Origin: Zhongshania aliphaticivorans
GTDB lineage: Bacteria; Pseudomonadota; Gammaproteobacteria; Pseudomonadales; Spongiibacteraceae
Assembly (NCBI RefSeq): GCF_001586255.1
Contig: NZ_CP014544.1
Span: forward strand, 1,705,501-1,769,500
Reading direction: 5' to 3'
DNA length: 64,000 nucleotides
Below, piece after piece: positions 4,675 through 49,905 of this stretch. Made by a program: the position numbers and the translations under genes. Each line of letters opens with the position of its first letter. Positions within the stretch are counted from its first letter, which is position 1. A model generated the notes under the pieces. The model searched no databases, was not told the origin of the DNA, and saw nothing but the letters and a program-made list of their open reading frames with translations.

Positions 4675-4695
4675 GGCGATATACCTGCCTGGTCA

Positions 4696-7161: not shown

Positions 7162-7644
7162 TCAAAATAACAGGCTGGCTTTACCGCGCAGCAGGTTGGG
7201 CAAGTCAGGCAGTTTGCCGAAGCCGGGCATCGTAATTCCGTCTAGTAGTGGCGCGGAGCTCACCGTCAGCTCACATATAATGCCGTCCAGTGCAGGCTGG
7301 CCGGCGGCGGGTGCAGCGGCGTCGTGGCAGTCACTTGCCCAGCTTAAGGAGTCGGGTGAATAAATGAGTAGGCCGTCGGTGTCGTTTATTTTGAGACGAA
7401 CACTGGCGATATTGTTGATTTGTGTTTCCCATTCCTCAACGCTTGAACAGTCTTCGCAAGCAAGGGCGGCGCGCAGGACTTCTTCGCTCGCATAGGTAAA
7501 GTTTTGCACTAACATGAATGCGAGGCCGTAGACGATTATGGCGTAGCAAATAATGAAAAATACCGGAAAGATGAAAACAAATTCGATGGCGACAGCGCCT
7601 TTTTGCCGCTGCTGAATAGCGCGAGAAAAATTAGGTCTTACCAT
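7162..7644 (-). CDS. tadE: TadE-like pseudopilin
   Basis: 160 residues. A short basic leader ends in 'KGAVAIEFVFIFPVFFIICY', the TadE signature: prepilin-type cleavage at Gly-Ala, Glu at position +5 and then a hydrophobic stem. A single membrane segment covers about residues 17-45. The remainder is soluble with several Cys ('CEDCSS', 'SDCHD', 'ICELTV') that may pair in the periplasm. TadE-class minor pseudopilins are needed for Flp pilus assembly. The start at 7644 has GGAG 7 bp upstream; the frame also opens at 7668 without a better site. Confidence 0.82.
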   Translation of the reverse strand: MVRPNFSRAIQQRQKGAVAIEFVFIFPVFFIICYAIIVYGLAFMLVQNFTYASEEVLRAALACEDCSSVEEWETQINNIASVRLKINDTDGLLIYSPDSLSWASDCHDAAAPAAGQPALDGIICELTVSSAPLLDGITMPGFGKLPDLPNLLRGKASLLF

Positions 7645-7700
7645 TGCGGTGCTCCATGCTGTGCTCAATATTACAAAGGTACAACCGGGGTGGTGCTACC

Positions 7701-8162
7701 TTAAAAACTGCTTTGGAAATGTAAGATTACTGCTCCTAATGCGATTGCGGTGCCCAGCGGTAAGCCGCGCTGAAAAGGGCTTTGTTGAACTGCCATATTC
7801 GAGCAATACGCTTTTGTTAATGACATCCGCTGCGCAATATGGAGGAATGCCATTAACAACAGTAAACTGCCTATGCCAATAGAAAACACCAGTAACAATT
7901 GCAGCGGCGCATAGAGCGGCGTTATTGCCAGCATTAGTTTTACATCGCCTCCGCCTAGTAAACCCCTAATATAACCGGGAAGTGTGAGCGCCAAGGCAAT
8001 GACGATATTTATTAATACTGTTGTTAAACTGCTGCCTTCAATGATTAACATTGAATAAGTGCCGAGCCCCAGCAAAACAAGTAAATAACTATTGGGTATT
8101 CGACGGTGCTGCCAGTCGATATACCCAATTGCAATGAGAGGGGCTATAGCAATGAGAAGCAT
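7701..8162 (-). CDS. cpaA: Prepilin peptidase CpaA/TadV
   Basis: 153 residues, an A24-family aspartyl protease of the short type without the methyltransferase domain. The two conserved catalytic Asp motifs are visible: 'GYIDWQHRRIPN' (N-terminal) and 'LLGGGDVKLML' (about residue 80). There are four to five membrane segments. It should process the Flp pilin and the TadE/TadG pseudopilins encoded around it. It lies 13 bp after flp. Confidence 0.92.
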   Translation of the reverse strand: MLLIAIAPLIAIGYIDWQHRRIPNSYLLVLLGLGTYSMLIIEGSSLTTVLINIVIALALTLPGYIRGLLGGGDVKLMLAITPLYAPLQLLLVFSIGIGSLLLLMAFLHIAQRMSLTKAYCSNMAVQQSPFQRGLPLGTAIALGAVILHFQSSF

Positions 8163-23773: not shown

Positions 23774-23798
23774 AAAAGGCGCCAAATGGCGCCTTTTT
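23774..23798 (+). terminator. Rho-independent terminator of fadD
   Basis: The sequence AAAAGGCGCC-AAAT-GGCGCCTTTT forms a 10-bp stem followed by a T run. It starts 25 bp after the fadD stop and lies just before hrpA. The in-frame ATG at 23786 that would extend hrpA upstream lies inside this hairpin. Confidence 0.85.
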
Positions 23799-23815
23799 TG
23801 TTTTTATTGGAATGT

Positions 23816-26800
23816 ATGTCTGAAACTCGATCAGAAATAAGCTCAGCCGCTGTTGTCGCCGTGGACCCGCAGTCGTTAATGGGGCAGCTAGAGAGCTGTT
23901 TGCAAGCGGACCGCTTCGCGCTTGGTCGCGCCTGTCGCCAATTGCAGCAACAAGCGGCGGCGGGTACTGACATTAGTCAAAAGCTGGCAGCACTGGTTGA
24001 GCGGTTTACGGCCTCCCAAACGAGAGTTCTACAACGGCGTGCTAATTTGCCGACGGTGGCGTATCCGCCAGATTTGCCGGTTAGTCAGCGGGTCGACGAT
24101 ATTCGCGCGGCCATCGCCGCTCACCAGGTCGTGGTTGTGGCGGGGGAGACCGGCTCGGGTAAAACCACGCAAATCCCCAAAATTTGTTTGGCTATGGGCC
24201 GTGGGGTTGCCGGTTTAATCGCCCATACTCAGCCCCGGCGTTTGGCTGCGCGGGCCGTTGCCCAGCGTTTGGCCGAGGAGCTGGATACCACCCTGGGTGA
24301 GGGCGTGGCTTTTCAAATACGCTTTCAAGAAGTTAGCTCGCCCAATAGCTATATCAAATTAATGACTGACGGTATTTTGCTGGCGGCTATTCAGCGCGAC
24401 CGTTTTTTAAGTGAATACGACACCATCATTATCGACGAGGCCCATGAGCGCAGCCTAAACATCGATTTTTTGCTGGGTTATTTAAAAACCCTGCTGCCTA
24501 AACGCCCCGATTTAAAGCTGATCATCACCTCGGCCACCATTGATGTGGCACGCTTCTCTGAACACTTTAATAATGCGCCGGTTATTGAAGTGTCTGGTCG
24601 GAGCTTTCCCGTTGAATATCGCTATCGTCCCCAAGAAGAACTGAGTGCCGACAATGATATTGGCGAGGCGGTAGAAGCGGTATTGCGCGAATTAATCGCT
24701 GAGGGTGCCCAGCGCAGCGGCGACACCTTGGTGTTTCTCAGCGGCGAGCGGGATATTCGTGATGTGACCCGCCATTTGCGCAAGGCCGATTTGCCGGGCG
24801 CAGAGGTCCTGCCACTGTACTCACGCCTGAGTACCGCCGAGCAACAGCGGATTTTTGACTTGCGCGGGCGGCGGGGCTGGCGGGTGGTATTAGCGACCAA
24901 CGTCGCCGAAACCTCGCTGACGGTGCCGGGAATCCGCTATGTAATCGACGGCGGTACCGCGCGTATTAGTCGCTATAGCGTGCGGAGCAAGGTGCAGCGC
25001 TTGCCGATTGAAGCGATATCGCAAGCCAGCGCCAATCAGCGCGCCGGTCGCTGTGGACGGGTGGCTGCGGGTATTGCCTATCGTCTGTATAGCGAAGCAG
25101 ATTATTTAAGTCGGCCGGTGTATACCGAACCCGAGATTCAGCGCACCAATCTCGCCGCCGTTATACTGCAAATGCTTCAGCTCAAACTAGGGGATATCAG
25201 CGCCTTTCCCTTTGTAGACGCGCCGGACAACAAATTTGTGAACGACGGCTTTGCGCTGTTGGCCGAATTAGGCGCGGTGCGTGACGGTAAACTCAATAAA
25301 CTCGGTCAGCAACTGGGCCGCTTTCCAGTTGACCCACGGATTGGCCGTTTGCTACTGGCCGCCGCCGATGGCGGCTGTTTGCGGGAAATGCTGATTATTG
25401 CCAGCGCGTTAAGTATTCAAGATCCTCGCGACCGTCCAGCGGATAAGCAGCAAGCTGCCGATGAAAAACACCGTCGCTTTTGGCAGCCAGATTCCGATTT
25501 TATGGCTTTTGTCGGCCTGTGGGACTACGCCGAGGAGCAGCGCCAAGCATTGTCGGCCAGCCAGTGGCGCAAACTCTGTCAGCGGGAGTTTTTGTCGTGG
25601 ACGCGGATGCGGGAGTGGCGGGAAGTCCACCACCAAATCACCTTGATGTGTCGGCAACTAAAGCTACCGGTCAATCGCGAGCCCGCTGATTTTGACAGCA
25701 TTCACCGCGCCTTGTTGCCGGGCTTTTTGGGCCAGATAGCCTGCAAAGACGAAGAGCGGGAGTATCTCGGTGCGCGCAATCGTAAATTGCGGATATTCCC
25801 CGGCTCCTCGTTATTTAAGAAAGCGCCAAAATGGATTGTGGCTGCCGAACTAGCCGAAACCACCCAGCTCTATGCGCGCTGTGTGGCGAAAATTGATCCT
25901 GAGTGGGTGTTTGGCATTAACGACGAGCTGTTAAAACGCAGCTATTACGAACCCCATTGGCATAGTCGCAGTGGTCGGGTGATGGCCTTCGAACAGACCA
26001 TGCTTTACGGCTTGCTGATTCGCGATAAAAAGCGGGTGCACTATGGTCCGATCTCGCCGGTAGAAAGTCGCGAAATTCTTATTCGCCAAGCCTTGGTGGA
26101 GGGGCGCTATCTGGGTAAAGCGGAATTCTTTCGCCACAACCGCAAGCTGATTGCGGAGATTGGTGAGCTAGAAGACAAGGCTCGGCGGCGAGATATTCTC
26201 ATATCCGACGATGAGTTATTTCGTTACTACGACGAGCGTATTCCCGAGGGCACCATTACCGCCGCCCATCTGGAAAGTTGGTTAAAAAGCACCGCAGCGC
26301 CACGGACTTTATTTTTGAGCCGTGGCGAATTAATGCGTCATGCCGGCAGCGATGTCACCGAGGAGCAGTTCCCGGATACCCTGCACTGCGCAGGCATGAT
26401 ACTGGCGCTGAGCTATCATTTTGAGCCGAATCACCCCGCCGACGGGGTTAGTGTGTCTGTGCCGCTGGCGAATCTGCCAAAGCTACCTGAGGGGCGTTTG
26501 GAGTGGCTGGTACCTGGCTTGTTGCGAGACAAGTGCATTGCGCTGCTCAAAAATCTGCCAAAAGCCCAGCGTAAACAATTGGTACCGGTGCCGGACTTTG
26601 TCGACAAGGCCTTGCCAATGCTCGCGGTCAATGACGTGGGTCTATTGCCCAGCTTGGCGGACGCGCTGCGCAAAATCAGCGGTCTGCAAATCGACGTGGC
26701 CGAGTGGTCGCGCAATAACATCGATAATTTTTACCGTATGAATATTCGGGTGCTGGACAACGCCGGTAAATTACTGGCCCAAAGCCGCGATTTGCGGGCG

Positions 26801-27754
26801 CTGTGCGCCGAGCTCGCGGTGCAGGTGCAGCAGGGCATTGCCGAAGAGCGTGGTAGTGGCTTTGAAACCAAGGTTCTCACTAGTTGGGATTTCGATCGCT
26901 TAGAGTCTCGTTACGAATTTAAGCAGGGCGGAGCAACCTTGGTCGCCTATCCCTGTTTACGGGATCAGGGCGAGAGTGTTGAACTAAGTCTTGCCGAGAC
27001 CGAGACCGACGCTCGGCAGGCAAATTTGCGCGGCGTTCAGCGCCTACTCTTATTGCGCTTGGCTCAGCAGTGCAAGAGCTTGCGGGCGAGCTTGTTTCGC
27101 AGCAACACGGTTCAATTACAATTGTCTGCGGTGGGTGAGCAAAAAAAGCGTTGGTTGGAAGATTGTCTGCTCGCTGCAAGCCAAAATTGCTTTGCATTGA
27201 GCGAGGAGAACTTGCCCCACACCCAGACGGAATTTGAACAAGTTTGGGAGCAGGGGCGCGCGGGCTTTGTTGCCGATGCCGAGGCCTGCGCTGAGTTGTT
27301 AAATAAAATACTGGCCAATTACGCGGATATTCGTCGCAGCCTTAAAAAGCTGAATTCGCTTAGCTGGATCCATAGTATCAATGACATCAATCGTCAGTTA
27401 GACGCTTTGTTTTTTGATGGTTTTATCACCGACCTCAGTCGCGATGAACTGGCGCAATACCCGCGTTATTTACAAGCAATTTTGCAGCGGATTAGTAAAC
27501 TGGACGGCGCCTATCAACGAGATCGGCAGTCGACCTTGGTGCTTGAGCCGCTGCAGCAGCAATTTTCAGAATTTGTTAAGAAGCTGCCAGACAAACATCG
27601 TCGTCACCGGCTGGTAATGGATTATCGTTGGCAACTGGAGGAGCTGCGCATTTCGCTGTTTGCTCAGAATATGGGCACCCGAACGCCGGTTTCGGAAAAG
27701 CGTTTAAAGGTTCTCTGGAAAGCCTTAGTGCAAGATGTAACATTATTGAATTGA
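23816..27754 (+). CDS. hrpA: HrpA, DEAH-box ATP-dependent RNA helicase
   Basis: 1312 residues, full HrpA length. Helicase motifs are Walker A 'GETGSGKTTQ', DEAH in 'IIIDEAHERSLNIDFL', motif III 'SATID', and motif VI 'QRAGRCGR'. The HA2/OB region follows, then the long HrpA-specific DUF3418 C-terminus. HrpA resolves stalled or collided ribosomes in E. coli. I chose the ATG at 23816 ('MSETRSEIS') with GGA 5 bp upstream; an ATG ten codons earlier falls in the fadD terminator. Confidence 0.95.
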   Translation: MSETRSEISSAAVVAVDPQSLMGQLESCLQADRFALGRACRQLQQQAAAGTDISQKLAALVERFTASQTRVLQRRANLPTVAYPPDLPVSQRVDDIRAAIAAHQVVVVAGETGSGKTTQIPKICLAMGRGVAGLIAHTQPRRLAARAVAQRLAEELDTTLGEGVAFQIRFQEVSSPNSYIKLMTDGILLAAIQRDRFLSEYDTIIIDEAHERSLNIDFLLGYLKTLLPKRPDLKLIITSATIDVARFSEHFNNAPVIEVSGRSFPVEYRYRPQEELSADNDIGEAVEAVLRELIAEGAQRSGDTLVFLSGERDIRDVTRHLRKADLPGAEVLPLYSRLSTAEQQRIFDLRGRRGWRVVLATNVAETSLTVPGIRYVIDGGTARISRYSVRSKVQRLPIEAISQASANQRAGRCGRVAAGIAYRLYSEADYLSRPVYTEPEIQRTNLAAVILQMLQLKLGDISAFPFVDAPDNKFVNDGFALLAELGAVRDGKLNKLGQQLGRFPVDPRIGRLLLAAADGGCLREMLIIASALSIQDPRDRPADKQQAADEKHRRFWQPDSDFMAFVGLWDYAEEQRQALSASQWRKLCQREFLSWTRMREWREVHHQITLMCRQLKLPVNREPADFDSIHRALLPGFLGQIACKDEEREYLGARNRKLRIFPGSSLFKKAPKWIVAAELAETTQLYARCVAKIDPEWVFGINDELLKRSYYEPHWHSRSGRVMAFEQTMLYGLLIRDKKRVHYGPISPVESREILIRQALVEGRYLGKAEFFRHNRKLIAEIGELEDKARRRDILISDDELFRYYDERIPEGTITAAHLESWLKSTAAPRTLFLSRGELMRHAGSDVTEEQFPDTLHCAGMILALSYHFEPNHPADGVSVSVPLANLPKLPEGRLEWLVPGLLRDKCIALLKNLPKAQRKQLVPVPDFVDKALPMLAVNDVGLLPSLADALRKISGLQIDVAEWSRNNIDNFYRMNIRVLDNAGKLLAQSRDLRALCAELAVQVQQGIAEERGSGFETKVLTSWDFDRLESRYEFKQGGATLVAYPCLRDQGESVELSLAETETDARQANLRGVQRLLLLRLAQQCKSLRASLFRSNTVQLQLSAVGEQKKRWLEDCLLAASQNCFALSEENLPHTQTEFEQVWEQGRAGFVADAEACAELLNKILANYADIRRSLKKLNSLSWIHSINDINRQLDALFFDGFITDLSRDELAQYPRYLQAILQRISKLDGAYQRDRQSTLVLEPLQQQFSEFVKKLPDKHRRHRLVMDYRWQLEELRISLFAQNMGTRTPVSEKRLKVLWKALVQDVTLLN

Positions 27755-27879
27755 GCGCGTCTGTATTTTGCTAGATCGAATTCGACTAAAGCTGCGTATG
27801 AATGGTGTTGGCTAAAACTGCTATGCTCATGTCGTTGTAGACGTAATAATTACTTGCTGATCCGATATGGAGAATAACA

Positions 27880-28332
27880 ATGACCCAGAAAGCCTTTACT
27901 AAAAATCCAATGGCGGCTGCATTTGGCGCGGCGCTTTTGGTATCCGCAATGCATCCGGCGATGGCGGGTGAAAACCCCTTCGCGGCTAAAGCGATGGCGT
28001 CTGGCTATGAGTTGGCGATGGGCAATGCCGATAAGGCCGCCAAAGCAGAAGCTAAATGTGGCGCTGATAAGGCCGGTACTGAAGCGCAGTGTGGTGCCGA
28101 CAAAGCCAAAGCGGCACATGAAGGCAAATGCGGCGAAGCAAAATGTGGGGCAGATGCTGCCAAAGTAGGGCATGAAGGTAAATGCGGAGACGGTAAGTGT
28201 GGCGCTGAAAAAGCCAAAGCCGCGCATGAGGGCAAGTGTGGAGAAGCCAAATGCGGTGCCGATAAAAGCAAGGCAGCCACCGAGGGCAAATGCGGTGAAG
28301 GTAAGTGTGGCGCCGGACACATGGCTAATTAG
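27880..28332 (+). CDS. hvfA: HvfA-type Cys-rich RiPP precursor (copper-binding, oxazolone/thioamide class)
   Basis: 150 residues. The N-terminal signal peptide ends at 'HPAMA' (about residue 29); then comes a short '[15 protein letters not shown]' segment and a repeat region with ten Cys at 60, 71, 84, 89, 102, 107, 120, 125, 138 and 143. Every Cys sits in a pentapeptide [ED]-[GA]-[KQ]-C-G, five of them exactly EGKCG, with an 18-residue period from residue 80. HvfA-family precursors in Haemophilus have EGKCG Cys converted by MNIO and DUF2063 partners to oxazolone-thioamide groups that bind Cu(I). Both partner genes follow directly. GGAG precedes the ATG. Confidence 0.88.
28117..28329 (+). repeat. 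54-bp in-frame tandem repeats in the RiPP precursor gene
   Basis: Four units start at 28117, 28171, 28225 and 28279 and encode [HT]-EGKCG-[ED]-[GA]-KCGA... with an 18-residue period. The units are diverged at DNA level in third positions, which argues for selection on the peptide and against recent copying. The last unit is shorter and ends at the stop codon. Confidence 0.85.
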
Positions 28333-28376
28333 GGGCTTCATATCCAACAGGCGGTCAGTGCGAATGGGCGAGTCTC

Positions 28377-29231
28377 ATGAGTAAACAAACCAGTGCACTT
28401 GCGGGCTTGGGCTTGCGGCGCGGCTTAATGCCGGCGCTAAAATCTCTGGCGAGCAAGGAGCTGGATTTTCTTGAGGTCGCCCCTGAAAACTGGCTGCATA
28501 TTGGCGGCCGTTTCGGCCGCTCATTTCGGGAGTTAGCAGCGCGCTACCCAATTTACCTACATGGTTTGTCTTTAAATATTGGTGGCTTCGCGCCACTCGA
28601 TACCCGCTTATTAAGCGATATTAAACAATTTATGCGGGATTTTGACTGCCCTTTGTATTCAGAGCACCTGACCTATTGTGGTGATGAAGGTCAGCTCTAT
28701 GATTTATTGCCCATTCCCTTTACGGAAGAGGCGGTACACCACGTGGCGGCGCGGGTTCGGCAGGTTCAGGATGTGTTAGGGCAGCGAATTTTATTGGAAA
28801 ATGCCTCGTATTATGCGGCGCCAGGCCAGGCAATGTCTGAAAGCGAATTTATCAACGCGGTACTGGCAGAGGCCGACTGTGATTTGCTGCTCGATGTGAA
28901 TAATGTTTTTGTGAATAGCGTAAATCACAATTACGATCCTTACCAGTTTATGCGGTCCTTACCCCTGGCGAGAGCGCGTTATATTCATATTGCCGGGCAT
29001 TTTGATGAGGCTGAAGACTTGCGGGTGGACACCCACGGGGCTGATGTTATTGAGCCGGTGTGGGCCTTACTTGATGAGGCCTATCGACTCTGTGGGCCGC
29101 TGCCGACGTTATTAGAGCGGGATTTTAACTTTCCTGCGATGGCGGACCTACTGCAGGAAGTACAGCAAATTCGTCAAGCACAAGCGAAGGTGGATTTTGC
29201 CGGCGCCCTTAGCAGTGGGTGCGCGGAGTAA
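28377..29231 (+). CDS. hvfB: MNIO family (DUF692) multinuclear iron oxidative enzyme, HvfB-like
   Basis: 284 residues, a TIM-barrel protein of the DUF692 family, the class that contains MbnB, TglH and ChrH. Conserved metal-ligand stretches are visible: 'FLEVAPENW', 'HGLSLNIGG', 'YSEHLTYC', 'LLENASYY', '[15 protein letters not shown]', 'YIHIAGH', 'DTHG' and 'LERDFNFP'. In characterised clusters the MNIO enzyme with its partner oxidises Cys residues of the precursor. The gene starts 44 bp after hvfA and its stop overlaps the start of the DUF2063 gene. Confidence 0.92.
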
Positions 29232-29968
29232 TGATGGCCTTTCAGCAAATCCAAGCGAGTATGACGCGCTTTGTACGCGACCCTGATACTTGTTCAGGCC
29301 CAGAAGGTATAGAAGCTCGGCGGATGGCGATTTATCGAGATCTGTTCTTTAATAATATTGAGGGCTTTCTCAGCAACGGATTCCCGGTGTGCCGAAGTTT
29401 ATATTGCGACGATGCATGGTATAGCTTGGTCCGAGATTTTATGTGTCGTCACCGCTGCCAAAGTCCTTATTTTTTGCAGATTGCTGAGGAGTTTCTCGCT
29501 TATCTTGGTGAGGAGCGAGACTCACAAACTGATCCCGTGTTCTTGCGAGAGTTGGCCCATTACGAATGGGTGGAGCTGGCCTTAGACATTGCCGAACAAG
29601 AATTACCCCCAGCCGTGCCGGTGGGAGATGTACTTAAGCTTTGTTGGGCTGTATCGCCACTTGCCTGGTCCTTGGCTTACCAGTTTCCGGTTCAGCACAT
29701 TAGTGGTGATTTTCAGCCTACAGCGCCGAGCGCTGAACCGACATTTATCGTGGTGTACCGAAACCGCCAGGACGAGGTGCAGTTTCTTGAAATCAATCAG
29801 GTAACGGCGAGGTTGCTGAGCATTATCGTTGAGCGGCCAGAATTAAATGGTGCTGAAATTCTCGCTGAAATTGCGCGTGAGTTGCACGTTGAGTACGCCT
29901 CGGTGGTCGGTTTTGGTAGCGAGATTTTAGCCCAGATGCGGGAACTGGATATTTTGCTGGTGAATTAG
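29231..29968 (+). CDS. hvfC: DUF2063 family partner of the MNIO enzyme, HvfC-like
   Basis: 245 residues. The N-terminal part matches the DUF2063 (putative DNA-binding domain) pattern: 'MTRFVRDPDTCSGPEGIEAR', 'MAIYRDLFFNNIEGFLSNGF', and 'FMCRHRCQSPYFLQIAEEFL' followed by 'LRELAHYEWVELALDIAEQE'. The C-terminal part is the usual partner domain. In HvfB/HvfC-type systems this protein delivers the precursor to the MNIO enzyme. The likely start is the ATG at 29231 (TAATG overlap) or 29234; GGAG lies at 29225-29228. A GTG at 29219 in the same frame is less likely. No DoxX-like hvfD follows. Confidence 0.88.
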   Translation: MMAFQQIQASMTRFVRDPDTCSGPEGIEARRMAIYRDLFFNNIEGFLSNGFPVCRSLYCDDAWYSLVRDFMCRHRCQSPYFLQIAEEFLAYLGEERDSQTDPVFLRELAHYEWVELALDIAEQELPPAVPVGDVLKLCWAVSPLAWSLAYQFPVQHISGDFQPTAPSAEPTFIVVYRNRQDEVQFLEINQVTARLLSIIVERPELNGAEILAEIARELHVEYASVVGFGSEILAQMRELDILLVN

Positions 29969-30051: not shown

Positions 30052-30780
30052 ATGATGCCAATGCAACGAAAAGTCTGTGCTTTGCTGATGTTGTTCTCAG
30101 TACTAGGGGTGGCTGGGGTGAACGCAGAGAGTGACGGCGATCCCCGTGACCCTTGGGAAGGTTTCAATCGCGGGGTATTTGCTTTTAATAATACGGCCGA
30201 TGAATACTTGGTGCAGCCAGTTGCCCGAGGCTATCGCCAGGTTACGCCTGCAATTGTTGATCAGGGTATCGCCAATTTCTTTAATAATATTGGCGAAATC
30301 AAAAATATGGCCAATGATTTATTGCAGGGTAAAGCCAGTGACGCGCTTGTGGATGGTGGTCGTTTTATTATTAATACTACCGTTGGCGTCATCGGCTTTT
30401 TTGATGTAGCTAGCTATATTGGTTTAAAACGCGAATCTGAAGATTTTGGCCAAACAATGGCCGTGTGGGGCGTTGGGCCTGGGCCGTATTTGGTGTTGCC
30501 GTTTTTAGGGCCGAGCAACCTCCGCGATGGTGCCGGTCAAGGCGTTGATTCCTACGTGTCAGTGACGGGCGCAGTTGACCCCGAAGCGGCGCGCTACGGT
30601 ATGAGCTTATTGGATTTACTGCAAGTTAGGGCGAGTTTATTGGGCACCGAAGGCCTTGTGTCGGGTGATAAATACACTTTTTTCAAAGATGCCTATCTAC
30701 AGCGTAGAGAGTTCTTGATAAATGACGGTCAGCTCAAAGATGACTTTGGCGACGAAGATTTCGAGTCATTCGACTTCTAA
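30052..30780 (+). CDS. mlaA: MlaA/VacJ family phospholipid transport protein
   Basis: 242 residues. Conserved MlaA blocks are 'DPWEGFNRGVFAFNNTADEY', 'FFNNIGEIKNMANDLLQGK', 'GFFDVASYIGL', 'EDFGQTMAVWGVGPGPYLVL' and 'FLGPSNLRDGAG'. MlaA works with porins and the MlaC carrier to remove phospholipids from the outer leaflet of the outer membrane. The signal peptide ends at 'VNA' and I see no lipobox Cys, so this copy looks like a type I-secreted protein instead of the usual lipoprotein. Three Met codons at the start (30052, 30055, 30061) leave the exact start open. Confidence 0.92.
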   Translation: MMPMQRKVCALLMLFSVLGVAGVNAESDGDPRDPWEGFNRGVFAFNNTADEYLVQPVARGYRQVTPAIVDQGIANFFNNIGEIKNMANDLLQGKASDALVDGGRFIINTTVGVIGFFDVASYIGLKRESEDFGQTMAVWGVGPGPYLVLPFLGPSNLRDGAGQGVDSYVSVTGAVDPEAARYGMSLLDLLQVRASLLGTEGLVSGDKYTFFKDAYLQRREFLINDGQLKDDFGDEDFESFDF

Positions 30781-30861: not shown

Positions 30862-32043
30862 ATGAATAACTCCTTACCCCATCGGATACTGCTGGTTCAG
30901 CAGACCGATGCAATTCAAGCTCAGCTCGTAGCCTCCCTAGAACAACTCGGTATGGACGTAGTGTCTATCGCGGACTGCGCTTTGGCGATGCCGAGTTTCC
31001 GTGAAGAAGATATCGATATCGTTATGATCGATATCGATTTTCCGGAGGATCGCGGTATAGATTTGCTGGGAAAAATGGCCGCAGACCCGCGCGAGCTACC
31101 TCTTATCGGCCTTTCTCGCCGCAAGAGTATGGCCGACGTCTTGGCGGCAGTGCGCCATGGTGCAAGCGACTACCTGATGCTACCGACTGAAAAACATGCT
31201 GTTATAAAGCATGTACTCGATCGGGCGTTGGAGCGGGGTGCCTTAAAGCGCGAAAATTTGGCGTACCGTAATAAATTAGAAAGTGCTAACCGAGAGTTAT
31301 TGGAGAGCTTGACCCTGTTACAGCAGGATCAGCAAGCCGGTAAGCACGTGCAGCAATTGCTTCTGCCAGATACCCCCAAGCAAATAGCGAACTATCAATT
31401 TTGTCACTATATATTGCCGTCGCTCTATCTGAGCGGTGATTTTGTCGACTATTTTGTGGTCGGGGAAGATCACGCCGTCTTTTTTGTTGCTGACGTGTCA
31501 GGGCATGGCGCGAGCTCAGCCTTTGTTACGGTGTTCTTGAAGAACCTCTTTGCGCGCAAGCGCAGTGATTTTTTGCATCGTGGGTCGACCGCCATACTGT
31601 CGCCAGCCAAAATGCTGGCGATTGCGAATCGCGAATTGCTTGAAATGGGCATTGGCAAGCATGTCACCCTTTGTGTGGGGGCATTCGATTTAAAATGTAA
31701 TCAATTGTCTTATTCGGTTGCCGGTCATTTGCCTGCTCCTGTGCTTGCGGTTAATGGCACGGCGACATTCTTACCGGAGCATGATATGCCGGTTGGCCTG
31801 TTTACTGATGCCCAATTCAGTGACCATATGATCAGTTTTCCGCCGGGGGCTGTGCTGAGTCTATTCTCTGATGGTATATTGGAGGTCTTGAACAGCGACA
31901 CCTTGGAAAATAAAGAACAGCTTCTGCTCGATTTATTAAAGCAGGGTCAAAACTCCTCAATCGAGCTCGCCGAGGTCTTTGGTTTATTCGATATAGATGA
32001 GGCTCCGGACGATATCGCAATTTTAGTAGTAAGTAGGTTATAG
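30862..32043 (+). CDS. Receiver / SpoIIE-type PP2C phosphatase (RssB-like)
   Basis: 393 residues. The N-terminal receiver-like domain (about 5-125) keeps the phosphorylatable Asp57 ('IVMIDIDF') but has Gln-Gln where the acidic pair normally is ('ILLVQQTD') and Leu in place of the conserved Lys ('DYLMLPTEK'). A coiled-coil linker (about 135-165) leads to a PP2C/SpoIIE domain (about 170-393) with 'LSGDFVDYF', 'FFVADVSGHGASSAF' and 'LFSDGILEV', whose Asp residues bind metal. Such proteins dephosphorylate a STAS antagonist, and one follows directly. The same neighbours occur in Pseudomonas (PA2798/PA2797). Confidence 0.9.
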   Translation: MNNSLPHRILLVQQTDAIQAQLVASLEQLGMDVVSIADCALAMPSFREEDIDIVMIDIDFPEDRGIDLLGKMAADPRELPLIGLSRRKSMADVLAAVRHGASDYLMLPTEKHAVIKHVLDRALERGALKRENLAYRNKLESANRELLESLTLLQQDQQAGKHVQQLLLPDTPKQIANYQFCHYILPSLYLSGDFVDYFVVGEDHAVFFVADVSGHGASSAFVTVFLKNLFARKRSDFLHRGSTAILSPAKMLAIANRELLEMGIGKHVTLCVGAFDLKCNQLSYSVAGHLPAPVLAVNGTATFLPEHDMPVGLFTDAQFSDHMISFPPGAVLSLFSDGILEVLNSDTLENKEQLLLDLLKQGQNSSIELAEVFGLFDIDEAPDDIAILVVSRL

Positions 32044-32047
32044 GCGA

Positions 32048-32536
32048 ATGCAGCCTGGTCGAATATTAGTAGCGGGACAGGACGGGGCCTTTGTTATAAA
32101 GCTGGTTGGCGATGTGCGGCTGACCCTTTGTACCACGTTGGACGAGTTCTTTGACGAGATGTTCTCGGTAGAGGGCTTTGCCAGTGTGGTCGTCGATTTG
32201 TCTGATGCCATCAACGTCGATAGCACGACCTTGGGGCTGCTAGCTAAATTAGCGATTAAAGCGAAGGAAAAATTCCAGTTCGTGCCTTTGATTTTATCTA
32301 CTAATCCCGATATTACCCGCGTGCTACAGAGCATGGGCTTTGATCGCGTGTTCCGTATTCGCCAAGAACCCCTGTTAAATGATGAAGATCTTGGCGAGTT
32401 GCCGGTGCTGGATGCCAGCGAAGAAGGTGTTCGGGAGCGGGTGCTTGAAGCCCATCGGACGTTGATGGGCTTAAGTGAGAGTAACCACGCTAAATTTAGA
32501 GAGTTAGTTTCCCTGCTGGAAGGCCAGTGCTTTTAG
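32048..32536 (+). CDS. STAS-domain anti-sigma factor antagonist
   Basis: 162 residues. A STAS domain (about 5-110) holds the phosphoacceptor Ser59 in 'INVDSTTLGLLAKLAIKAKE', the standard position in SpoIIAA/RsbV-type antagonists. It should be the substrate of the PP2C phosphatase encoded 4 bp upstream. A short helical tail (about 115-162) follows. No anti-sigma kinase gene is in the immediate neighbourhood. Confidence 0.9.
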   Translation: MQPGRILVAGQDGAFVIKLVGDVRLTLCTTLDEFFDEMFSVEGFASVVVDLSDAINVDSTTLGLLAKLAIKAKEKFQFVPLILSTNPDITRVLQSMGFDRVFRIRQEPLLNDEDLGELPVLDASEEGVRERVLEAHRTLMGLSESNHAKFRELVSLLEGQCF

Positions 32537-44843: not shown

Positions 44844-45002
44844 GGATGGCTGTTATTTTGTTTGGGTTCGGCTGAGAGCGGATTCCATCTTGATATTTAT
44901 TCGCTATACTTTGGCTTGGACCCCAAGCCATTGCTTGGTCAAAATGAACAATTAGATTGCGCTGATCTCAAGCCAATTGAAGGCAGTTCAGTAGGTAAGC
45001 GA

Positions 45003-45815
45003 ATGGATTTGAAACTCGTCAGCTTGGATGGCAACGAAGCCTATGCTATTGCAAGCGGGTCGGTGGTTATTGGCCGTGATAACGACTGCGATATTACTAT
45101 TGCCAAAGGCTTGTTATCTCGCCATCACGCTAAGTTAAGCTATATCTCTGGGGAATGGATACTCGAAGATCTTGCCTCGACTAACGGCACCTGTGTTAAC
45201 AACCGACTACTAAACAAGCCCGCCGCGGTTAAAAGTGGTGATGTTATTCGATTTGGCGAAGCGGCATATTACCTAAAAAGTACTGCCGAAGAAGAGCGCA
45301 CTATCGTCGCTGCGCGGCTTCCTCAGAAAGATAATTTTGGCGGTGGCTCTGTTGTAATAGAAGATGAGCCCGATAGCGAATTAACGTCATTTCAGCAGTC
45401 CTACCAACTTCCCCCAGGATGGACCGATACAGCGATTCGTAGCACAAAATATTCTAAGGAAGTGATAGATCAGCGAATTCAACGAGCGATTAGCGCAAAG
45501 CAAACCAGCACCGAAGTAGCGCTGGTGTTTTTCTTTGCCGATGGCCGTAGTTTAGTGTTCGGGGTGTCGGCTAAAAATGCCGATACATTTTGGACTATTG
45601 GGCGTCAGGAAAATCTAAAAATAAGAATTGATGACCCAAGTGTGTCGATGTTACATGCGAAATTAATTCATAAAAGTGGCAGTTGGTGGCTGGAAGATAT
45701 CGGCTCTACCAATGGTATTAGAATTAATGGTGAAGCCAGTAGCAAAGTCGCGTTGCACGACGGCCAATTACTTAGCTTGGGACGTATTGATATGGTGTTT
45801 CGTCAATTGCACTGA
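45003..45815 (+). CDS. Double FHA-domain protein
   Basis: 270 residues with two forkhead-associated domains. The first (about 20-95) has 'VVIGRDNDCDITI', 'LLSRHHAKL' and 'LASTNGTCVNN'; the second (about 190-265) has 'WTIGRQENLKIRI', 'VSMLHAKLI' and 'IGSTNGIRING'. Both keep the Arg, Ser and Asn that hold phosphothreonine. No membrane segment, so it should be cytoplasmic. The start is the ATG at 45003 with AGGT upstream; the longer frame from 44862 gives a 47-residue tail not like an FHA protein. It opens a same-strand group that ends in a Ser/Thr kinase. Confidence 0.88.
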   Translation: MDLKLVSLDGNEAYAIASGSVVIGRDNDCDITIAKGLLSRHHAKLSYISGEWILEDLASTNGTCVNNRLLNKPAAVKSGDVIRFGEAAYYLKSTAEEERTIVAARLPQKDNFGGGSVVIEDEPDSELTSFQQSYQLPPGWTDTAIRSTKYSKEVIDQRIQRAISAKQTSTEVALVFFFADGRSLVFGVSAKNADTFWTIGRQENLKIRIDDPSVSMLHAKLIHKSGSWWLEDIGSTNGIRINGEASSKVALHDGQLLSLGRIDMVFRQLH

Positions 45816-45886
45816 GTTTGTTTAGACGAAGTGGTCGCCAATAGACGCTCCGGCTCATCAGGGATTAGATGACAGAGGCAGATCGT

Positions 45887-47530
45887 ATGAAAATAATATA
45901 TGGGCTCGTAAGAGTCAGCGTTGCAATCAGTTTGGCGATACTGGTGTCCTGCGCAGCGAACCAAGATGACCGCAGTGCGCAGTCGCCAAGTGTCAACACG
46001 GAAGTGATTATAGCGGGCTTGCAAATTGTTGACTGCCTGTTACCGGGGCAAATGCGCAAGCTTGGCAATATGACGTATCTGTCGCCGCGACGGCCAATAA
46101 AAACGACTGCAGCAGACTGTAATATTCGTGGCGGGGAGTATGTTGCCTATGATCGCGCCAACTATAAAACAGCATTAAAAATTTGGCTGCCCGCCGCTGA
46201 GCAGGGCGACGCAGAGGCGCAGTTGGCGGTCGGCGAGATTTTTGAGAAGGGCCTAGGCACCGAGCCAAATTACAAGGCCGCAGTGCTTTGGTACCAAAAA
46301 GCGGCGGCGCAGGGAAATAAAAGCGCGCAATTTAATTTGGGAACAATGTACGAGCAGGGCCTCGGTGTTGAGAAGGATAAACTACAAGCCCTTAATTTAT
46401 ATCGCGATGCCTGGGGCCTACCTGACGATAGCGTGATATTTCAAGATGCTGCACGCGCTGAACAAATGGCCTTACGCAGTGAGCTGGAAAAGCAGTTGGC
46501 GAGTAAAAGCAATCAACTCGCATTAATGGAACGTCAGCTTAACGCACTTAAAAAACAATTAGCCGATAATGATAAATCACAGAAGCTTGCTGATGGCGGC
46601 GCAGAGAAATTAGTCACCTTGGCGCAATTAGTTCAGTCACTCCAAGATGATCGCGCTAGCGTAGAGCGTCAACTGTCAACTATTCCCCGTTTGCGTACGC
46701 CCGCAACAACGCTCAAATCCAGTCCCGCGTCGAACACGCTCGGCAGTGAAATTAAGTTGGCGGACATGGATTTTGGGCGTTATTACGCCTTAGTCATTGG
46801 CAACCGAAATTATGCCCAATTAGAGAATTTACAAACACCCCTAAATGACGCCCGAGAAGTGGGCGAAATACTCGAAAAGCAATACGGTTTTCACGTTCAA
46901 CTATTATTGGATAGCGACCGCTTAACCGTTATGAAAGCGATAAATGAGCTTCACAGCGTGCTGACCGAAAATGACAATTTACTTATTTATTACGCAGGCC
47001 ACGGTTCAATGATTAATATTGGCGAGCGCGATACTGGCTATTGGCTGCCGATTAATGCGGATCCGCCACCGAATGACGCTTCTTGGGTTTCGAATGAGTT
47101 TATTAGTAATCATTTAGGCCGTATTCAGGCGAAGCGGGTTTTGGTCATTGCTGATTCTTGTTATGGCGGCTTACTTTCTTCTGCACCGGGGCACTTGTTT
47201 TTTGGGCAAAACGCCAATTCAACAAGCAGTGAATATATAAAATATAAATTACCACGCCGCTCGCGCCTATTATTGTCCTCGGGTGGCGATAAGCCGGTTA
47301 TTGACGAAGGCGGCGGCGATCATTCCGTGTTTGCTCAAGAACTAATCGATGTGCTGCGCAAAAATAAAGACGTGCTTTCTGCGCCGGATTTATATGCCAG
47401 CATACGCGGCCCAGTAAAAGTACGCGCGGCGGCGAATCAGTTTGTTCAAGAGCCGGTTTATAAAAGTATAAAAGGTGCTGGGCACGAAGTTGGTGATTTT
47501 TTCTTTGTACCTAGTAGCCTCGTGCAATAA
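45887..47530 (+). CDS. Lipoprotein with Sel1 repeats and a caspase-like (C14) domain
   Basis: 547 residues. The lipoprotein signal ends in 'LAILVSC' (Cys22). Two Sel1-type repeats cover about 88-165 ('AEAQLAVGEIFEKGLGTEPN', 'KSAQFNLGTMYEQGLGVEKD'). A coiled coil is at about 190-265 ('QLALMERQLNALKKQLADN'). A peptidase C14 domain fills about 295-545, with catalytic His372 in 'LIYYAGHGS' and Cys425 in 'IADSCYGG'. Unlike cytoplasmic prokaryotic caspases it is exported. GAGG precedes the ATG at 45887; a start at 45869 is possible. Confidence 0.88.
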   Translation: MKIIYGLVRVSVAISLAILVSCAANQDDRSAQSPSVNTEVIIAGLQIVDCLLPGQMRKLGNMTYLSPRRPIKTTAADCNIRGGEYVAYDRANYKTALKIWLPAAEQGDAEAQLAVGEIFEKGLGTEPNYKAAVLWYQKAAAQGNKSAQFNLGTMYEQGLGVEKDKLQALNLYRDAWGLPDDSVIFQDAARAEQMALRSELEKQLASKSNQLALMERQLNALKKQLADNDKSQKLADGGAEKLVTLAQLVQSLQDDRASVERQLSTIPRLRTPATTLKSSPASNTLGSEIKLADMDFGRYYALVIGNRNYAQLENLQTPLNDAREVGEILEKQYGFHVQLLLDSDRLTVMKAINELHSVLTENDNLLIYYAGHGSMINIGERDTGYWLPINADPPPNDASWVSNEFISNHLGRIQAKRVLVIADSCYGGLLSSAPGHLFFGQNANSTSSEYIKYKLPRRSRLLLSSGGDKPVIDEGGGDHSVFAQELIDVLRKNKDVLSAPDLYASIRGPVKVRAAANQFVQEPVYKSIKGAGHEVGDFFFVPSSLVQ

Positions 47531-47610
47531 GCCCCCAGTGCTTGTCGACATGCCGGAGGCTGTTGCAACAATAAAAATGGGTGAGTGCTTTTTAGATAGG
47601 GAGATTGGCA

Positions 47611-48876
47611 GTGAAAAATTTAACGCTAAACATGAGCTTTTTGCTGGGGCTGTTCGCGGCTACAACACTGGTCTTGCCAGCGAGTGCAGCCGAAAATTGC
47701 CAAGCTCGCAAGCAAACTGATTCAAATTCCGAGAATCCGCCGCCACCAACGGGGGGCGTTGGCACGGGTGGTGAGTACGTGAGCTTTGAATCACCTACAG
47801 CAGTAAGAGTCGCCGAAAGCGAGAGCCCAGAGCCGACGCAGACGGAATTAAATGATAGCTGTGGCGCTACGGTGACTGAGGGCAGCGCTAGTCAAGCGAA
47901 AGAGTTAGCAATGACCGTTCTCAATAAAATTAATAATTTGCGATCTAGGTCAGGCAATACCAATCAGACAGCTGGTTTGAATTTTTCACCTCTTGGTGGC
48001 GCAGCTAGCGCTGATAATGCGCTACTTGATGACAGTCGCCTGTCTCTGTTCAGTTTTACGGAATACACCAAGCGGGACCGCGAGGCAACGGCCAGCAGTG
48101 GTGGTTATGATCAAGAGAGCAATGCGATAACCATAGGCTTCGATTACCGTGTTGATGAGGCAAGCTTTGCAGGTATGTCGATCAGTGTCAGTGATGGTGA
48201 CAGTGATCTAGACAGTCGTTTGGGTGGTAGTGAGGTGTCGTCGCTAATGCTGGGAAGCCACGGTGCTAAATATTGGGACAGCCATTATATATCGGCGTTT
48301 CTAGCTTATGGGGCAATCGATATTGATGTGGATCGCAGCACCACAAGCGATGCATTTTCGGCGTCAACCGAGGGTGATTATTGGTATGCTGATTTTACCG
48401 TAGGCGCTGATTATGACTACGGCCCGCTGAGATTAAACCCGAGTGTGCGGGCCTTATTTATGCGAGGTGAGGTGGACAGCTACACCGAGCGGTCTGCCTC
48501 CGGTAGTGGGGCGGTGCGCAGTGTCAATGCCCAAGATATCGACTCTACTGTTTTGAGTTTGGCTGTGCAGGCAGACTATTCTTTATTGCAGTCCTGGGGC
48601 GTGCTGTCACCATCGGTGCGGGCGGAATTTAATTTTGATCAGGGTGATGCCTATAAGACGAATGGCCAGACCTTGAATGATGCTGATAAAAGCTTCCTCG
48701 CGAGTATTTCTGATCAGTCTGACGAGCCGGATTCGAGTACCTTAGCGCTTTCCTTCGGCGTGGCTGCGCAATTTAAGCGCGGCTTGGCGGCCTATGCGGC
48801 TTATGAGCGTTTGTTAATGCATGACTATATGAATAAATATACCGCGACCATAGGCTTACGCATTGAATTACCTTAA
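47611..48876 (+). CDS. Outer-membrane protein with an autotransporter-type beta-barrel
   Basis: 421 residues from a GTG with GGGAG 8 bp upstream. The signal peptide ends near 'ASAAEN'. Residues 30-120 are polar and low-complexity, rich in Pro, Ser and Glu. About 150-421 form an autotransporter-like barrel: alternating strands such as 'YWYADFTVGADYDYGPLRLN', 'SVRALFMRGEVDSYTERSAS' and 'VLSPSVRAEFNFDQGDAY'. There is no passenger domain. The C-terminus ends in Pro instead of the usual aromatic residue, which could affect BAM recognition. It follows the caspase-like lipoprotein by 80 bp. Confidence 0.75.
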   Translation: MKNLTLNMSFLLGLFAATTLVLPASAAENCQARKQTDSNSENPPPPTGGVGTGGEYVSFESPTAVRVAESESPEPTQTELNDSCGATVTEGSASQAKELAMTVLNKINNLRSRSGNTNQTAGLNFSPLGGAASADNALLDDSRLSLFSFTEYTKRDREATASSGGYDQESNAITIGFDYRVDEASFAGMSISVSDGDSDLDSRLGGSEVSSLMLGSHGAKYWDSHYISAFLAYGAIDIDVDRSTTSDAFSASTEGDYWYADFTVGADYDYGPLRLNPSVRALFMRGEVDSYTERSASGSGAVRSVNAQDIDSTVLSLAVQADYSLLQSWGVLSPSVRAEFNFDQGDAYKTNGQTLNDADKSFLASISDQSDEPDSSTLALSFGVAAQFKRGLAAYAAYERLLMHDYMNKYTATIGLRIELP

Positions 48877-48902
48877 TGGGCTGAGCAATTAGTGCTTTAT
48901 CA

Positions 48903-49697
48903 GTGAATGCGCCTCGGTATGGGTATGTTTTCACTATTGTATGGATGTTAATGCTCGCTGCCTGTGCCACGCCGACTCAACGTATTGACGTCACCGCAGA
49001 GCGTTTGGGTATGACTAAGGGGCTTGTTGAGGGGCTTAACTTCCGTCATGTTACTTACGCCAAGCCTCACTCAACGACAAAAACACTGCATATTTATCTC
49101 GACGGTGATGGTAGTCCTTGGCGACACGGTCGATATATTGCCAATGACCCGACGCCCAGAAATCCCTTAGTCTTAGGCTTGGCCAGTCTTGATACAGAGG
49201 CCGATGTCGTCTATCTGGGGCGACCCTGCTATTTGGGTTTGCATGATGAGCCAATGTGCAACAAGAATCTGTGGACGTCGGCACGTTATGGTGACGCGGT
49301 GGTACGGAGTATGGCAGCTGCCGCGCAGGCGTTGATACAAGAGCGGGGGGCAAACAGCGTCAGCCTGATTGGTTTCAGTGGCGGCGGTAGCTTAGCAATG
49401 TTAATGCTCGCCTATATGGTGTCTGTAGACGAAGTGGTTACTGTGGCTGCGAATTTAGATACAGACGGCTGGGCGAAACATCATGGGTATTTGCCCTTGC
49501 ATGAGTCGCTGAATCCCATGCTGTTGCGTTATCCCACACATGTCAGGTATCGGCATTTTTCTGGTGAACATGACGATAATGTTCCCACCCAACTGACGCG
49601 GGCATTTATTGCCCGGCACGGTGGCGAATTAGTCCTAGTCCCGAACTTTAGCCATCATTGCTGCTGGCGCGAGCAGTGGCCAGACTTAATCAAATAG
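48903..49697 (+). CDS. Lipoprotein serine hydrolase (alpha/beta fold)
   Basis: 264 residues from a GTG start. The signal peptide ends in the lipobox 'LAAC' (Cys about 21). The nucleophile elbow is 'SLIGFSGGGSLAML' (Ser in GFSGG). 'HIYLDGDGSPW' looks like the oxyanion strand, and a C-terminal His occurs in 'PNFSHHCCWREQW'; an Asp in 'SGEHDDNVP' could complete the triad. It should act in the periplasm or at the outer membrane. Substrate unknown. Confidence 0.72.
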   Translation: MNAPRYGYVFTIVWMLMLAACATPTQRIDVTAERLGMTKGLVEGLNFRHVTYAKPHSTTKTLHIYLDGDGSPWRHGRYIANDPTPRNPLVLGLASLDTEADVVYLGRPCYLGLHDEPMCNKNLWTSARYGDAVVRSMAAAAQALIQERGANSVSLIGFSGGGSLAMLMLAYMVSVDEVVTVAANLDTDGWAKHHGYLPLHESLNPMLLRYPTHVRYRHFSGEHDDNVPTQLTRAFIARHGGELVLVPNFSHHCCWREQWPDLIK

Positions 49698-49755
49698 TAG
49701 TGGGCTGTTTAAGCCGTTCTAATAGCAATTGGCGTGTTGGTGCTGAGGATTGAAG

Positions 49756-49905
49756 ATGAGTGAACAGGACAAAACCCGTATCAGTACCCTCGTTCCCTCC
49801 GCGCGCGATGACGATGCAACACAAGTATCTTTTGATGCAGACGGTACTGATTTGTTATCGCCGCGCGGTCAGGGGGGGCGCGGACATCGAGGCGAACAAC
49901 GATAA
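49756..49905 (+). pseudogene. Probable true N-terminus of the Ser/Thr kinase, out of frame with its body
   Basis: An ATG at 49756 with GAGG at good spacing opens a 49-codon frame beginning '[20 protein letters not shown]'. It ends at TAA 49903-49905 because it passes a run of seven G (49872-49878). If one G is removed, the frame continues into the kinase frame as '...[20 protein letters not shown]'. Both halves carry the same [D]-[KA]-T-x-[LIV] motifs (DKTRI, DATQV, DKTAL, DATLL), which supports that they belong together. Confidence 0.65.

What the first reader, a model, noticed from the sequence alone, without database searches (positions are those of the whole stretch)
27880..29968. HvfABC-type copper-RiPP operon with ten regular Cys pentapeptides and no hvfD
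A secreted precursor with ten [ED]-[GA]-[KQ]-C-G units (five of them EGKCG) is followed directly by an MNIO (DUF692) enzyme and a DUF2063 partner, all co-directional and nearly overlapping. In H. influenzae, HvfA with EGKCG motifs is modified by HvfBC to oxazolone-thioamides that bind Cu(I). Here the repeat has a strict 18-residue period and half of the motifs vary ([15 protein letters not shown]), so it can test which motif variants are modified. The usual DoxX-like hvfD is missing.
Basis: partly seen in the sequence, partly recalled or inferred. Interest (0 to 1): 0.8.

Follow-up and report, generated by a model that had tools for sequence, protein, structure and literature searches.

The report
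Split copper-peptide system, second precursor elsewhere
A marine bacterium carries an ordinary three-gene set for making a copper-binding modified peptide, but the partner gene that looked missing sits elsewhere in its chromosome beside a second copy of the peptide gene and a stress-response switch that may control both places.

Summary
In detail: 27880-29968 encodes an HvfA-family precursor with ten Cys pentapeptides, an HvfB-family MNIO and HvfC, all family-confirmed. Corrections: the 18-residue period covers only the last eight motifs, and the modification is now assigned as 5-thiooxazole (PMC13097082, PMC13419390). EAKCG and DGKCG are already known to be modified by a related enzyme. By itself this is a captophorin/oxazolin operon, here in Zhongshania.

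The DoxX-like gene is not missing from the genome. One MNIO and one HvfC were found, but 1.87 Mb away lies a second HvfA (eight Lys-Cys motifs), divergent from an hvfX (DoxX) gene followed by an ECF sigma factor and an anti-sigma gene with ZAS residues. TGTAAC-N16-CGTCT occurs exactly twice in 4.2 Mb: before hvfABC and before hvfX; variants stand there across the genus. Four relatives lack the precursor beside hvfBC and have one at the hvfX locus, so HvfBC most likely works in trans. Best reading: a two-locus, two-precursor captophorin regulon under one ECF sigma factor. New variant of a known kind; no expression or chemistry data, and the inducer is uncertain.

The parts
27736..27761 (+). Putative ECF-sigma promoter TGTAAC-N16-CGTC(T) for hvfA1BC, overlapping the last codons and the stop of hrpA
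   Evidence: one of only two exact TGTAAC-N16-CGTCT sites in the genome. TGTAAC-N16-N[GA]TC upstream of hvfA1BC or hvfBC in 17 of 17 Zhongshania genomes whose hvfBC follows hrpA (18 searched; in G018 the site lies 53 bases past the hrpA stop)
27880..28332 (+). hvfA1: precursor with a probable signal peptide, 150 aa, ten Cys pentapeptides
   Evidence: (NF050137 87.7 bits, cut-off 19.5)
27880..27966 (+). Probable Sec signal peptide, cleavage after AMA before GENPF (read by eye, no predictor run)
   Evidence: Sequence
27967..28011 (+). Segment with the NPF...GY block shared by both precursors (probable enzyme-recognition segment, inferred)
   Evidence: NPF and GY in all 28 genus precursors (14 A1, 14 A2); the script picked frames by NPF, but the frames listed, picked by Cys motifs, show it too
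28048..28311 (+). Core: ten [ED][GA][KQ]CG motifs; last eight in four pairs with an 18-residue period
28377..29231 (+). hvfB: MNIO (PF05114) with R14 R15, D249 and F250, as in Lys-Cys MNIOs
29231..29968 (+). hvfC: DUF2063 / PME1 partner; ATG overlaps the hvfB stop
23786..27754 (+). Flanking gene, HrpA-type helicase (called by eye from its sequence; syntenic marker only)
30052..30780 (+). Flanking gene, MlaA lipoprotein (syntenic marker only)

Best explanation
hvfA1BC makes a captophorin (oxazolin-like peptide). HvfC holds the precursor and HvfB oxidises its KCG (and perhaps QCG) cysteines to 5-thiooxazoles; the peptide is exported by Sec and binds Cu(I) in the periplasm. In Zhongshania the system is spread over two loci. 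The second locus carries another precursor, hvfA2, divergent from hvfX (DoxX), an ECF sigma factor gene and an anti-sigma gene with ZAS residues. One HvfBC pair serves both precursors in trans. One sigma factor, encoded at the second locus, reads TGTAAC-N16-CGTCT-type promoters before hvfA1BC and hvfX-ecf-zas, and perhaps a variant before hvfA2. By analogy with H. influenzae RpoE2/HrsE the likeliest inducer is an oxidant such as HOCl, though the meningococcal counterpart did not respond to the oxidants tried. Shown here: gene content, family membership, promoter-like sites and their conservation, and relatives lacking the local precursor. Inferred: the chemistry, copper binding, trans modification, sigma specificity and inducer.
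For: Families. MNIO residues reported for Lys-Cys enzymes (Arg15-Arg16, Asp249-Phe250 in FonB) are present as R14 R15, D249, F250 (matched by motif, not by alignment with FonB). One MNIO match and one HvfC match in the genome, but two precursors. HvfX family match; ECF sigma regions 2 and 4; anti-sigma NF052368 57.4 over 50. Its Cys4, His30, Cys34, Cys37 (read from the sequence) fall at the very positions given for meningococcal MseR. ECF and ZAS genes lie behind hvfX in 16 of 16 Zhongshania genomes with the hvfX orthologue, of 18 searched. hvfA2 is divergent from hvfX in 14 of those 16. TGTAAC-N16-CGTCT: 2 sites in 4.2 Mb, both at hvf genes; in 18 genus genomes 23 of 51 sites lie at hvf promoters (my tally of its coordinates). 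The three sister-genus genomes have TGTAAC-N16-CATCTAA upstream of hvfB, within 570 bases of its conserved start. Four of 18 genomes have hrpA-hvfB-hvfC with no precursor between hrpA and hvfB, and a precursor at the hvfX locus. In H. influenzae a DoxX, COG3220 and DUF2063 gene cluster (by its content the hvf operon) depends on RpoE2 after HOCl (PMC7907618).
Against: No expression, binding or mass data for this organism. The pattern is not enriched over the genus as a whole (51 sites against 50 for the backward-read control in the same 18 genomes; 0 against 13 in the 3 sister genomes); only its placement is unusual. The -35 before hvfA1 overlaps hrpA codons (D-V-T), so coding constraint may explain part of its conservation. 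The hvfA2 side has a different -10 (TCTC, CATC and the like). Inducer: meningococcal rpoE and msrAB did not respond to hydrogen peroxide, diamide, singlet oxygen or SDS-EDTA. By the stricter rule the motif stood upstream of the precursor in only 8 of 73 named relatives with a precursor found, in none of six Microbulbifer loci, and no ECF/ZAS match lay within 1.5 kb of HvfX in the five Microbulbifer genomes with an HvfX match. So this control is lineage-specific. In the published Microbulbifer work the operon was not detected as expressed with or without copper, and the authors hesitate to assign a copper-protective role (PMC12538549).
Confidence: 0.68

Rival explanations
1. A plain copper-inducible hvfABC operon; the distant hvfA2-hvfX-ecf-zas locus is a separate system with its own duty, and the shared sites are coincidence.
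For: ABC clusters without DoxX yield modified peptide in E. coli (fon, mmr). The pattern as a whole occurs at chance frequency in the genus. The hvfA1 -35 overlaps hrpA coding sequence.
Against: No second MNIO or HvfC was found for the distant precursor; four relatives have a precursor only at the hvfX locus and a bare hvfBC; both exact sites in 4.2 Mb are at hvf genes; one relative (G020) carries ecf-zas-hvfA-hvfB-hvfC-hvfX as one run of genes.
Confidence: 0.15
2. HvfA2 is never modified: an unmodified Cys-rich periplasmic metal or thiol buffer that shares only regulation with hvfBC.
For: Antoine et al. note that precursors not associated with MNIO genes might be modified by enzymes from another locus or not modified (PMC12452194, passage).
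Against: HvfA2 keeps the NPF...GY segment of HvfA1 and 110 of 110 Lys before Cys in 14 genomes; where the local precursor is absent, hvfBC is kept (4 of 18 genomes).
Confidence: 0.08
3. Another regulator (not the linked ECF sigma factor) reads TGTAACA.
For: TGTTACA and TGTAAC form an inverted pair between hvfA2 and hvfX, which could also be an operator. Neisserial sigma-E sites have another -35 (GTMAGBWTT) and a 12-13 base spacer.
Against: Fixed 16-base spacing to a CGTC-type second element before hvfA1BC and hvfX; the CGTCTAA -10 reported for Neisseria and the N16 layout of Caulobacter sigma-F; the gap between the two half sites varies among genomes, which argues against a dimer site.
Confidence: 0.15

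Closest known systems
H. influenzae hvfABC with hvfX (oxazolin), and RpoE2/HrsE
   Same: HvfA, HvfB, HvfC and HvfX families; repeated EGKCG; ECF sigma with a small anti-sigma that has ZAS residues; a DMT-family transporter gene lies near the control genes in both (here)
   Different: There one precursor in a four-gene operon and rpoE2-hrsE near msrAB; here two precursors, hvfX-ecf-zas standing with the second one, and a QCG motif
Neisseria NMB2140-2145 with rpoE and MseR (taken here as the meningococcal counterpart of the gonophorin genes, my inference)
   Same: DoxX gene, three hypothetical genes, ECF sigma and anti-sigma in one autoregulated unit; -10 CGTCTAAH; anti-sigma residues at the same positions 4, 30, 34, 37
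   Different: One operon, a different -35 and a 12-13 base spacer; here the parts stand at two places and the spacer is 16. MsrAB is a target there; I did not look for msr genes here
Fontiphorin fonABC (Fontimonas thermophila)
   Same: Minimal ABC cluster, [10 protein letters not shown] repeats, Lys-Cys-type MNIO residues
   Different: No second precursor or sigma link is described in the parts I read
Microbulbifer mmrABC (bulbicupramide)
   Same: ABC without DoxX; paired-Cys cassettes; MNIO 62-65% identical in seven named Microbulbifer loci
   Different: Six Microbulbifer loci lack the TGTAAC-N15..17-[CT][GA]TC site, and no ECF/ZAS was found beside HvfX
Bufferin 1 cluster with SigF/NrsF (Caulobacter)
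   Same: MNIO-DUF2063-DoxX under an ECF sigma factor; GTAACC-N16-CGAA
   Different: DUF2282 precursor and NrsF-type anti-sigma; no PF06532 (NrsF) match in this genome

Membership tests
Captophorin / HvfABC (Lys-Cys group) | Precursor with repeated EGKCG-type motifs of the HvfA family | tested here: met
   NF050137 87.7 bits, cut-off 19.5; ten motifs. The narrower NF050188 equivalog scores 56.3, under its cut-off 95
Captophorin / HvfABC (Lys-Cys group) | Sec signal peptide on the precursor | tested here: inconclusive
   Seen by eye (hydrophobic stretch and AMA before GENPF); no predictor was run
Captophorin / HvfABC (Lys-Cys group) | MNIO of the HvfB family with Arg-Arg and Asp-Phe | tested here: met
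   PRK05409 425 over 360; R14 R15, D249 F250
Captophorin / HvfABC (Lys-Cys group) | PME1 / HvfC partner with DUF2063 | tested here: met
   NF050145 307.9 over 142; PF09836 and PF22106
Captophorin / HvfABC (Lys-Cys group) | 5-thiooxazole on each Cys and Cu(I) binding | not testable with these tools
   Needs mass spectrometry and NMR
hvf system with HvfX | DoxX-like HvfX in the same operon | tested here: not met
   Absent from this operon; present at C1:3606526-3607143
ECF/ZAS-controlled hvf regulon (as RpoE2/HrsE) | ECF sigma with a small ZAS anti-sigma, shared promoters | tested here: inconclusive
   Both genes present and linked to hvfX; ZAS residues read by eye; shared promoter-like sites; ECF group not assigned, regulation not measured
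Bufferin (DUF2282) or SigF/NrsF type | BufB equivalog; NrsF in the genome | tested here: not met
   NF050167 265.3 under its cut-off 310; PF06532 no match

The most novel reading that the evidence does not exclude
Zhongshania runs its captophorin system as a dispersed single-purpose regulon: the ECF/ZAS pair encoded with hvfX switches on two precursors at two loci that share one enzyme pair. The two precursors have diverged in role: HvfA2 is strictly Lys-Cys, while HvfA1 carries spaced, partly non-Lys motifs. Which precursor is kept can be exchanged between species.
Probability: 0.45. Interest if true: 0.62.

Novelty: new variant of a known kind. Interest (0 to 1): 0.5.

Why it matters
What these widespread copper peptides are for, and what turns them on, is unsettled: the Microbulbifer operon was not seen expressed even with copper, while the H. 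influenzae one follows hypochlorite through an ECF sigma factor, and the meningococcal sigma factor answered none of the oxidants tried. A genus in which precursor, maturation enzymes, HvfX and regulator are separated, and in which species lack one precursor or the other, separates these parts genetically. It offers a clean test of whether one HvfBC pair serves unlinked precursors, and ties HvfX to the regulator more closely than to the enzymes.

Tried and rejected
Absence of hvfD: rejected for the genome. NrsF-type control: no PF06532 match. A general promoter rule for hvf loci: rejected. Of 80 named loci (themselves the best 80 of 108), 73 gave a precursor by my rule, a few with under 150 bases of upstream sequence held. 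The site TGTAAC-N15..17-[CT][GA]TC stood within 450 bases upstream in 8: three of the seven loci titled Zhongshania (the other four have GGTC or AGTC instead) and five titled Alcanivorax, one of these only 18 bases before the start. Microbulbifer as a second case of the split: rejected, since HvfX matched in 5 of 6 Microbulbifer genomes but with no precursor and no ECF/ZAS match within 1.5 kb (one precursor-like frame in L225 overlaps the hvfX gene in another frame and was dropped). A sigma-70 promoter before hvfA1: none found. The tree of HvfB+HvfC puts the four genomes lacking the local precursor in two clades; the three sister-genus genomes have it, so loss is likelier than never having had it. 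The separation of the clades is only moderately supported (91/91), and G020 is a very long branch, so whether its single run of genes is ancestral or acquired is open. I made no structure model: family matches were decisive and a fold would not test the new claims. Organism: genus Zhongshania rests (97% MNIO identity to Z. antarctica); the species is not established.

Full report
OBSERVATION. The window region 27880-29968 holds three co-directional genes as stated. The precursor (150 aa) has ten [ED][GA][KQ]CG pentapeptides: five EGKCG, three EAKCG, one DGKCG, one EAQCG. Shuffling the mature part 10,000 times gave at most two such motifs. The Cys spacings are 11,13,5,13,5,13,5,13,5, so the 18-residue period belongs to the last four pairs; the first two motifs are single. 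The hvfC ATG at 29231 overlaps the hvfB stop codon.

WHAT IT IS. The precursor matches the NCBIfam HvfA domain model (87.7 bits, cut-off 19.5) and falls short of the narrow HvfA equivalog (56.3, cut-off 95). The enzyme matches the HvfB family (425, cut-off 360) and not the bufferin BufB equivalog (265, cut-off 310). The partner matches HvfC (308, cut-off 142). The nearest solved structures by sequence are 3BWW for HvfB and 3DEE for HvfC. HvfB has the arginine pair and the Asp249-Phe250 pair that Gadgil et al. tie to Lys-Cys substrates (PMC13097082: abstract, three of four parts of the results, and passages read). That paper, and Manley et al. (PMC13419390, abstract and introduction read), reassign the modification to 5-thiooxazole. 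Gadgil et al. report modification of EAKCG in FonA and of a DGKCG variant; before the Cys, Ala, Arg and Thr were tolerated and Phe and Glu severely impaired processing. I saw no Gln variant there, and EAQCG is not in the main text. So the motif-variant question is partly answered already; EAQCG (and EASCG/EGQCG in relatives) is open.

THE MISSING PARTNER. The genome (one contig of 4,204,359 bases) has one MNIO match and one HvfC match. It has two precursors: the HvfA domain model also hits C1:3606004-3606183 on the minus strand. That gene, hvfA2 (L005:1447-1773, minus; 108 aa), has eight Cys in four [10 protein letters not shown] pairs with a 16-residue period. It is divergent from a gene that matches the HvfX family (224 bits, cut-off 80), L005:1975-2592. 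Behind hvfX lie an ECF sigma factor gene (L218:3749-4363, GTG start; PF04542 and PF08281) and, overlapping it, an 86-aa anti-sigma gene (L218:4357-4617; NF052368 57.4, cut-off 50). Its sequence has Cys4, His30, Cys34 and Cys37, the positions given for meningococcal MseR. An EamA/DMT transporter gene lies on the other side of hvfA2 in the same direction as hvfA2. A second DoxX gene (C1:3350046-3350294) was not followed further.

COMPARISON ACROSS THE GENUS. Loci named Zhongshania lead the MNIO hits (97% to Z. antarctica). The family search examined 21 genomes: this one, 17 more of the genus, and 3 of a sister genus. hvfB and hvfC occur in 21 of 21. Of the 18 genus genomes, 14 have a precursor directly before hvfB and 4 (G010, G011, G015, G018) have none: the hrpA frame ends 106 to 209 bases before the matched start of hvfB (G011 was judged only). 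All four have a precursor beside hvfX. The domain model did not find the G018 precursor at E 0.001; it was found by reading the locus. Sixteen of 18 have the hvfX orthologue, each with ECF and ZAS genes behind it; 14 of these 16 have hvfA2 divergent from hvfX. G013 has a transporter gene (EamA-like by eye) there instead, and G019 has hvfX beside a helicase-like gene (by eye). In G014 no hvfX and no second precursor were found. G020 carries ecf-zas-hvfA-hvfB-hvfC-hvfX in one run. Thus one precursor or the other can be absent while hvfBC stays, which is the best available evidence for trans service. G011 also has a second MNIO beside a precursor-like gene of another type, so its case is weaker than the other three.

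PROMOTERS. The hvfA2-hvfX gap, aligned in 14 genomes, holds TGTTACA and TGTAAC in all 14. Read toward hvfX this is TGTAAC-N16-CGTC, found in 16 of 16 hvfX loci. Toward hvfA2 it is TGTAAC-N16 followed by TCTC, CATC or similar, in 13 of 14 by the search rule (G007 has ACTC). Before hvfA1BC the same layout overlaps the end of hrpA: window 27736-27761. TGTAAC-N16-N[GA]TC stands there in 13 of 13 precursor-bearing genomes aligned (G020 not included). The four genomes without a local precursor have it upstream of hvfB: CGTC in G010, G011 and G018 (in G018 53 bases past the hrpA stop) and AGTC in G015 (read from the printed sequence). The three sister-genus genomes have TGTAAC-N16-CATCTAA upstream of hvfB. 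In this genome TGTAAC-N16-CGTCT occurs twice, both at hvf genes; the backward-read control occurs three times. In the 18 genus genomes it occurs 51 times against 50 for the control, and 23 of the 51 are at hvf promoters by my tally of the coordinates. The other 28 show no excess. The hvfA1 copy lies partly in coding sequence, which weakens that one line.

HOW IT MOST LIKELY WORKS. Shown: the genes, their families, the sites and their conservation. Inferred: a stress frees the ECF factor from its anti-sigma; the factor transcribes hvfA1BC, hvfX-ecf-zas and perhaps hvfA2; HvfBC modifies both precursors before export; the peptides bind Cu(I) in the periplasm. The closest precedent: in H. influenzae a DoxX-cluster operon, which by its COG3220 and DUF2063 genes I take for hvf, depends on RpoE2 after HOCl; RpoE2 is held by the 67-aa anti-sigma HrsE with ZAS residues, and it also controls a DMT transporter (PMC7907618: abstract, passages, sections 24 and 29 read). 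In Neisseria the DoxX gene, three hypothetical genes, rpoE and its anti-sigma form one operon with a CGTCTAAH -10 (PMC2893595, passages read). Against the oxidant idea, the same paper saw no response of meningococcal rpoE or msrAB to hydrogen peroxide, diamide, singlet oxygen or SDS-EDTA, and reports from other work that gonococcal genes of the group do respond to peroxide. Caulobacter sigma-F uses GTAACC-N16-CGAA and controls DUF2282-type clusters (PMC3511200, passages read). In Cupriavidus gig is divergent from rpoQ, without proof of control, and is induced by copper (PMC10304878, passages read). So the inducer here stays open between oxidant, copper and something else.

A DIFFERENCE BETWEEN THE TWO PRECURSORS. 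Over 14 hvfA1 genes, 116 of 139 Cys follow Lys and 10 of 14 genomes have at least one Gln, Ser, Arg or Ile there; over 14 hvfA2 genes, 110 of 110 follow Lys. Both share an NPF...GY segment after the signal peptide in all 28. These rows include close relatives, so they are not independent. This suggests, without proving, separate roles.

WHAT IS KNOWN AND WHAT IS NEW. The peptide type, enzymes, variable repeat number, DoxX-less clusters, precursors encoded away from an MNIO (PMC12452194: abstract, sections 14 and 15, passages read; PMC12538549: abstract, section 9 part 1 of 2, section 10 read), and ECF control of such operons are known. I found no paper describing the two-locus, two-precursor arrangement, the shared TGTAAC-N16-CGTCT sites, or a captophorin of Zhongshania, in the listings of searches of the open library (one search listed 25 of 359 papers, 15 of 26, 20 of 7,598). 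Supplements were not read, and most subscription papers are not held. Hence a new variant of a known kind.

Noticed in passing
window 44862-51259: Co-directional group: double FHA protein, Sel1 plus caspase-domain (Peptidase C14) protein, autotransporter beta-domain protein, a protein without a Pfam match that looks like a serine hydrolase by eye, and a Ser/Thr kinase. A possible kinase-FHA-caspase signalling module.
   Followed up: partly
window 943-8162, minus strand: Tad/Flp-type pilus secretion gene cluster (T2SSF and T2SSE domains confirmed for two genes; the rest judged by eye).
   Followed up: partly
window 30862-32536: Response regulator with a SpoIIE phosphatase domain followed by a STAS-domain protein: a partner-switch-like pair just past mlaA.
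   Followed up: partly
L114 (G011:C11): A relative carries a second MNIO cluster with a different Cys-containing precursor-like protein of 92 aa, a partner-like protein and a DoxX-like gene, looking like a bufferin-1 cluster (by eye).
   Followed up: no
L231 (genome of L164, Alcanivorax): HvfX with ECF (42%) and ZAS (44%) genes before it, with no HvfB or HvfC match within the stretch; at the hvfABC locus of that genome (L164) the precursor is preceded by TGTAAC-N16-CATC. A possible parallel split. The hvfX match there comes in two pieces.
   Followed up: partly
G000:C1:3349740-3350363: A second DoxX gene (49-55% identical to HvfX) elsewhere in the genome, with similar second matches in most Zhongshania genomes.
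   Followed up: no
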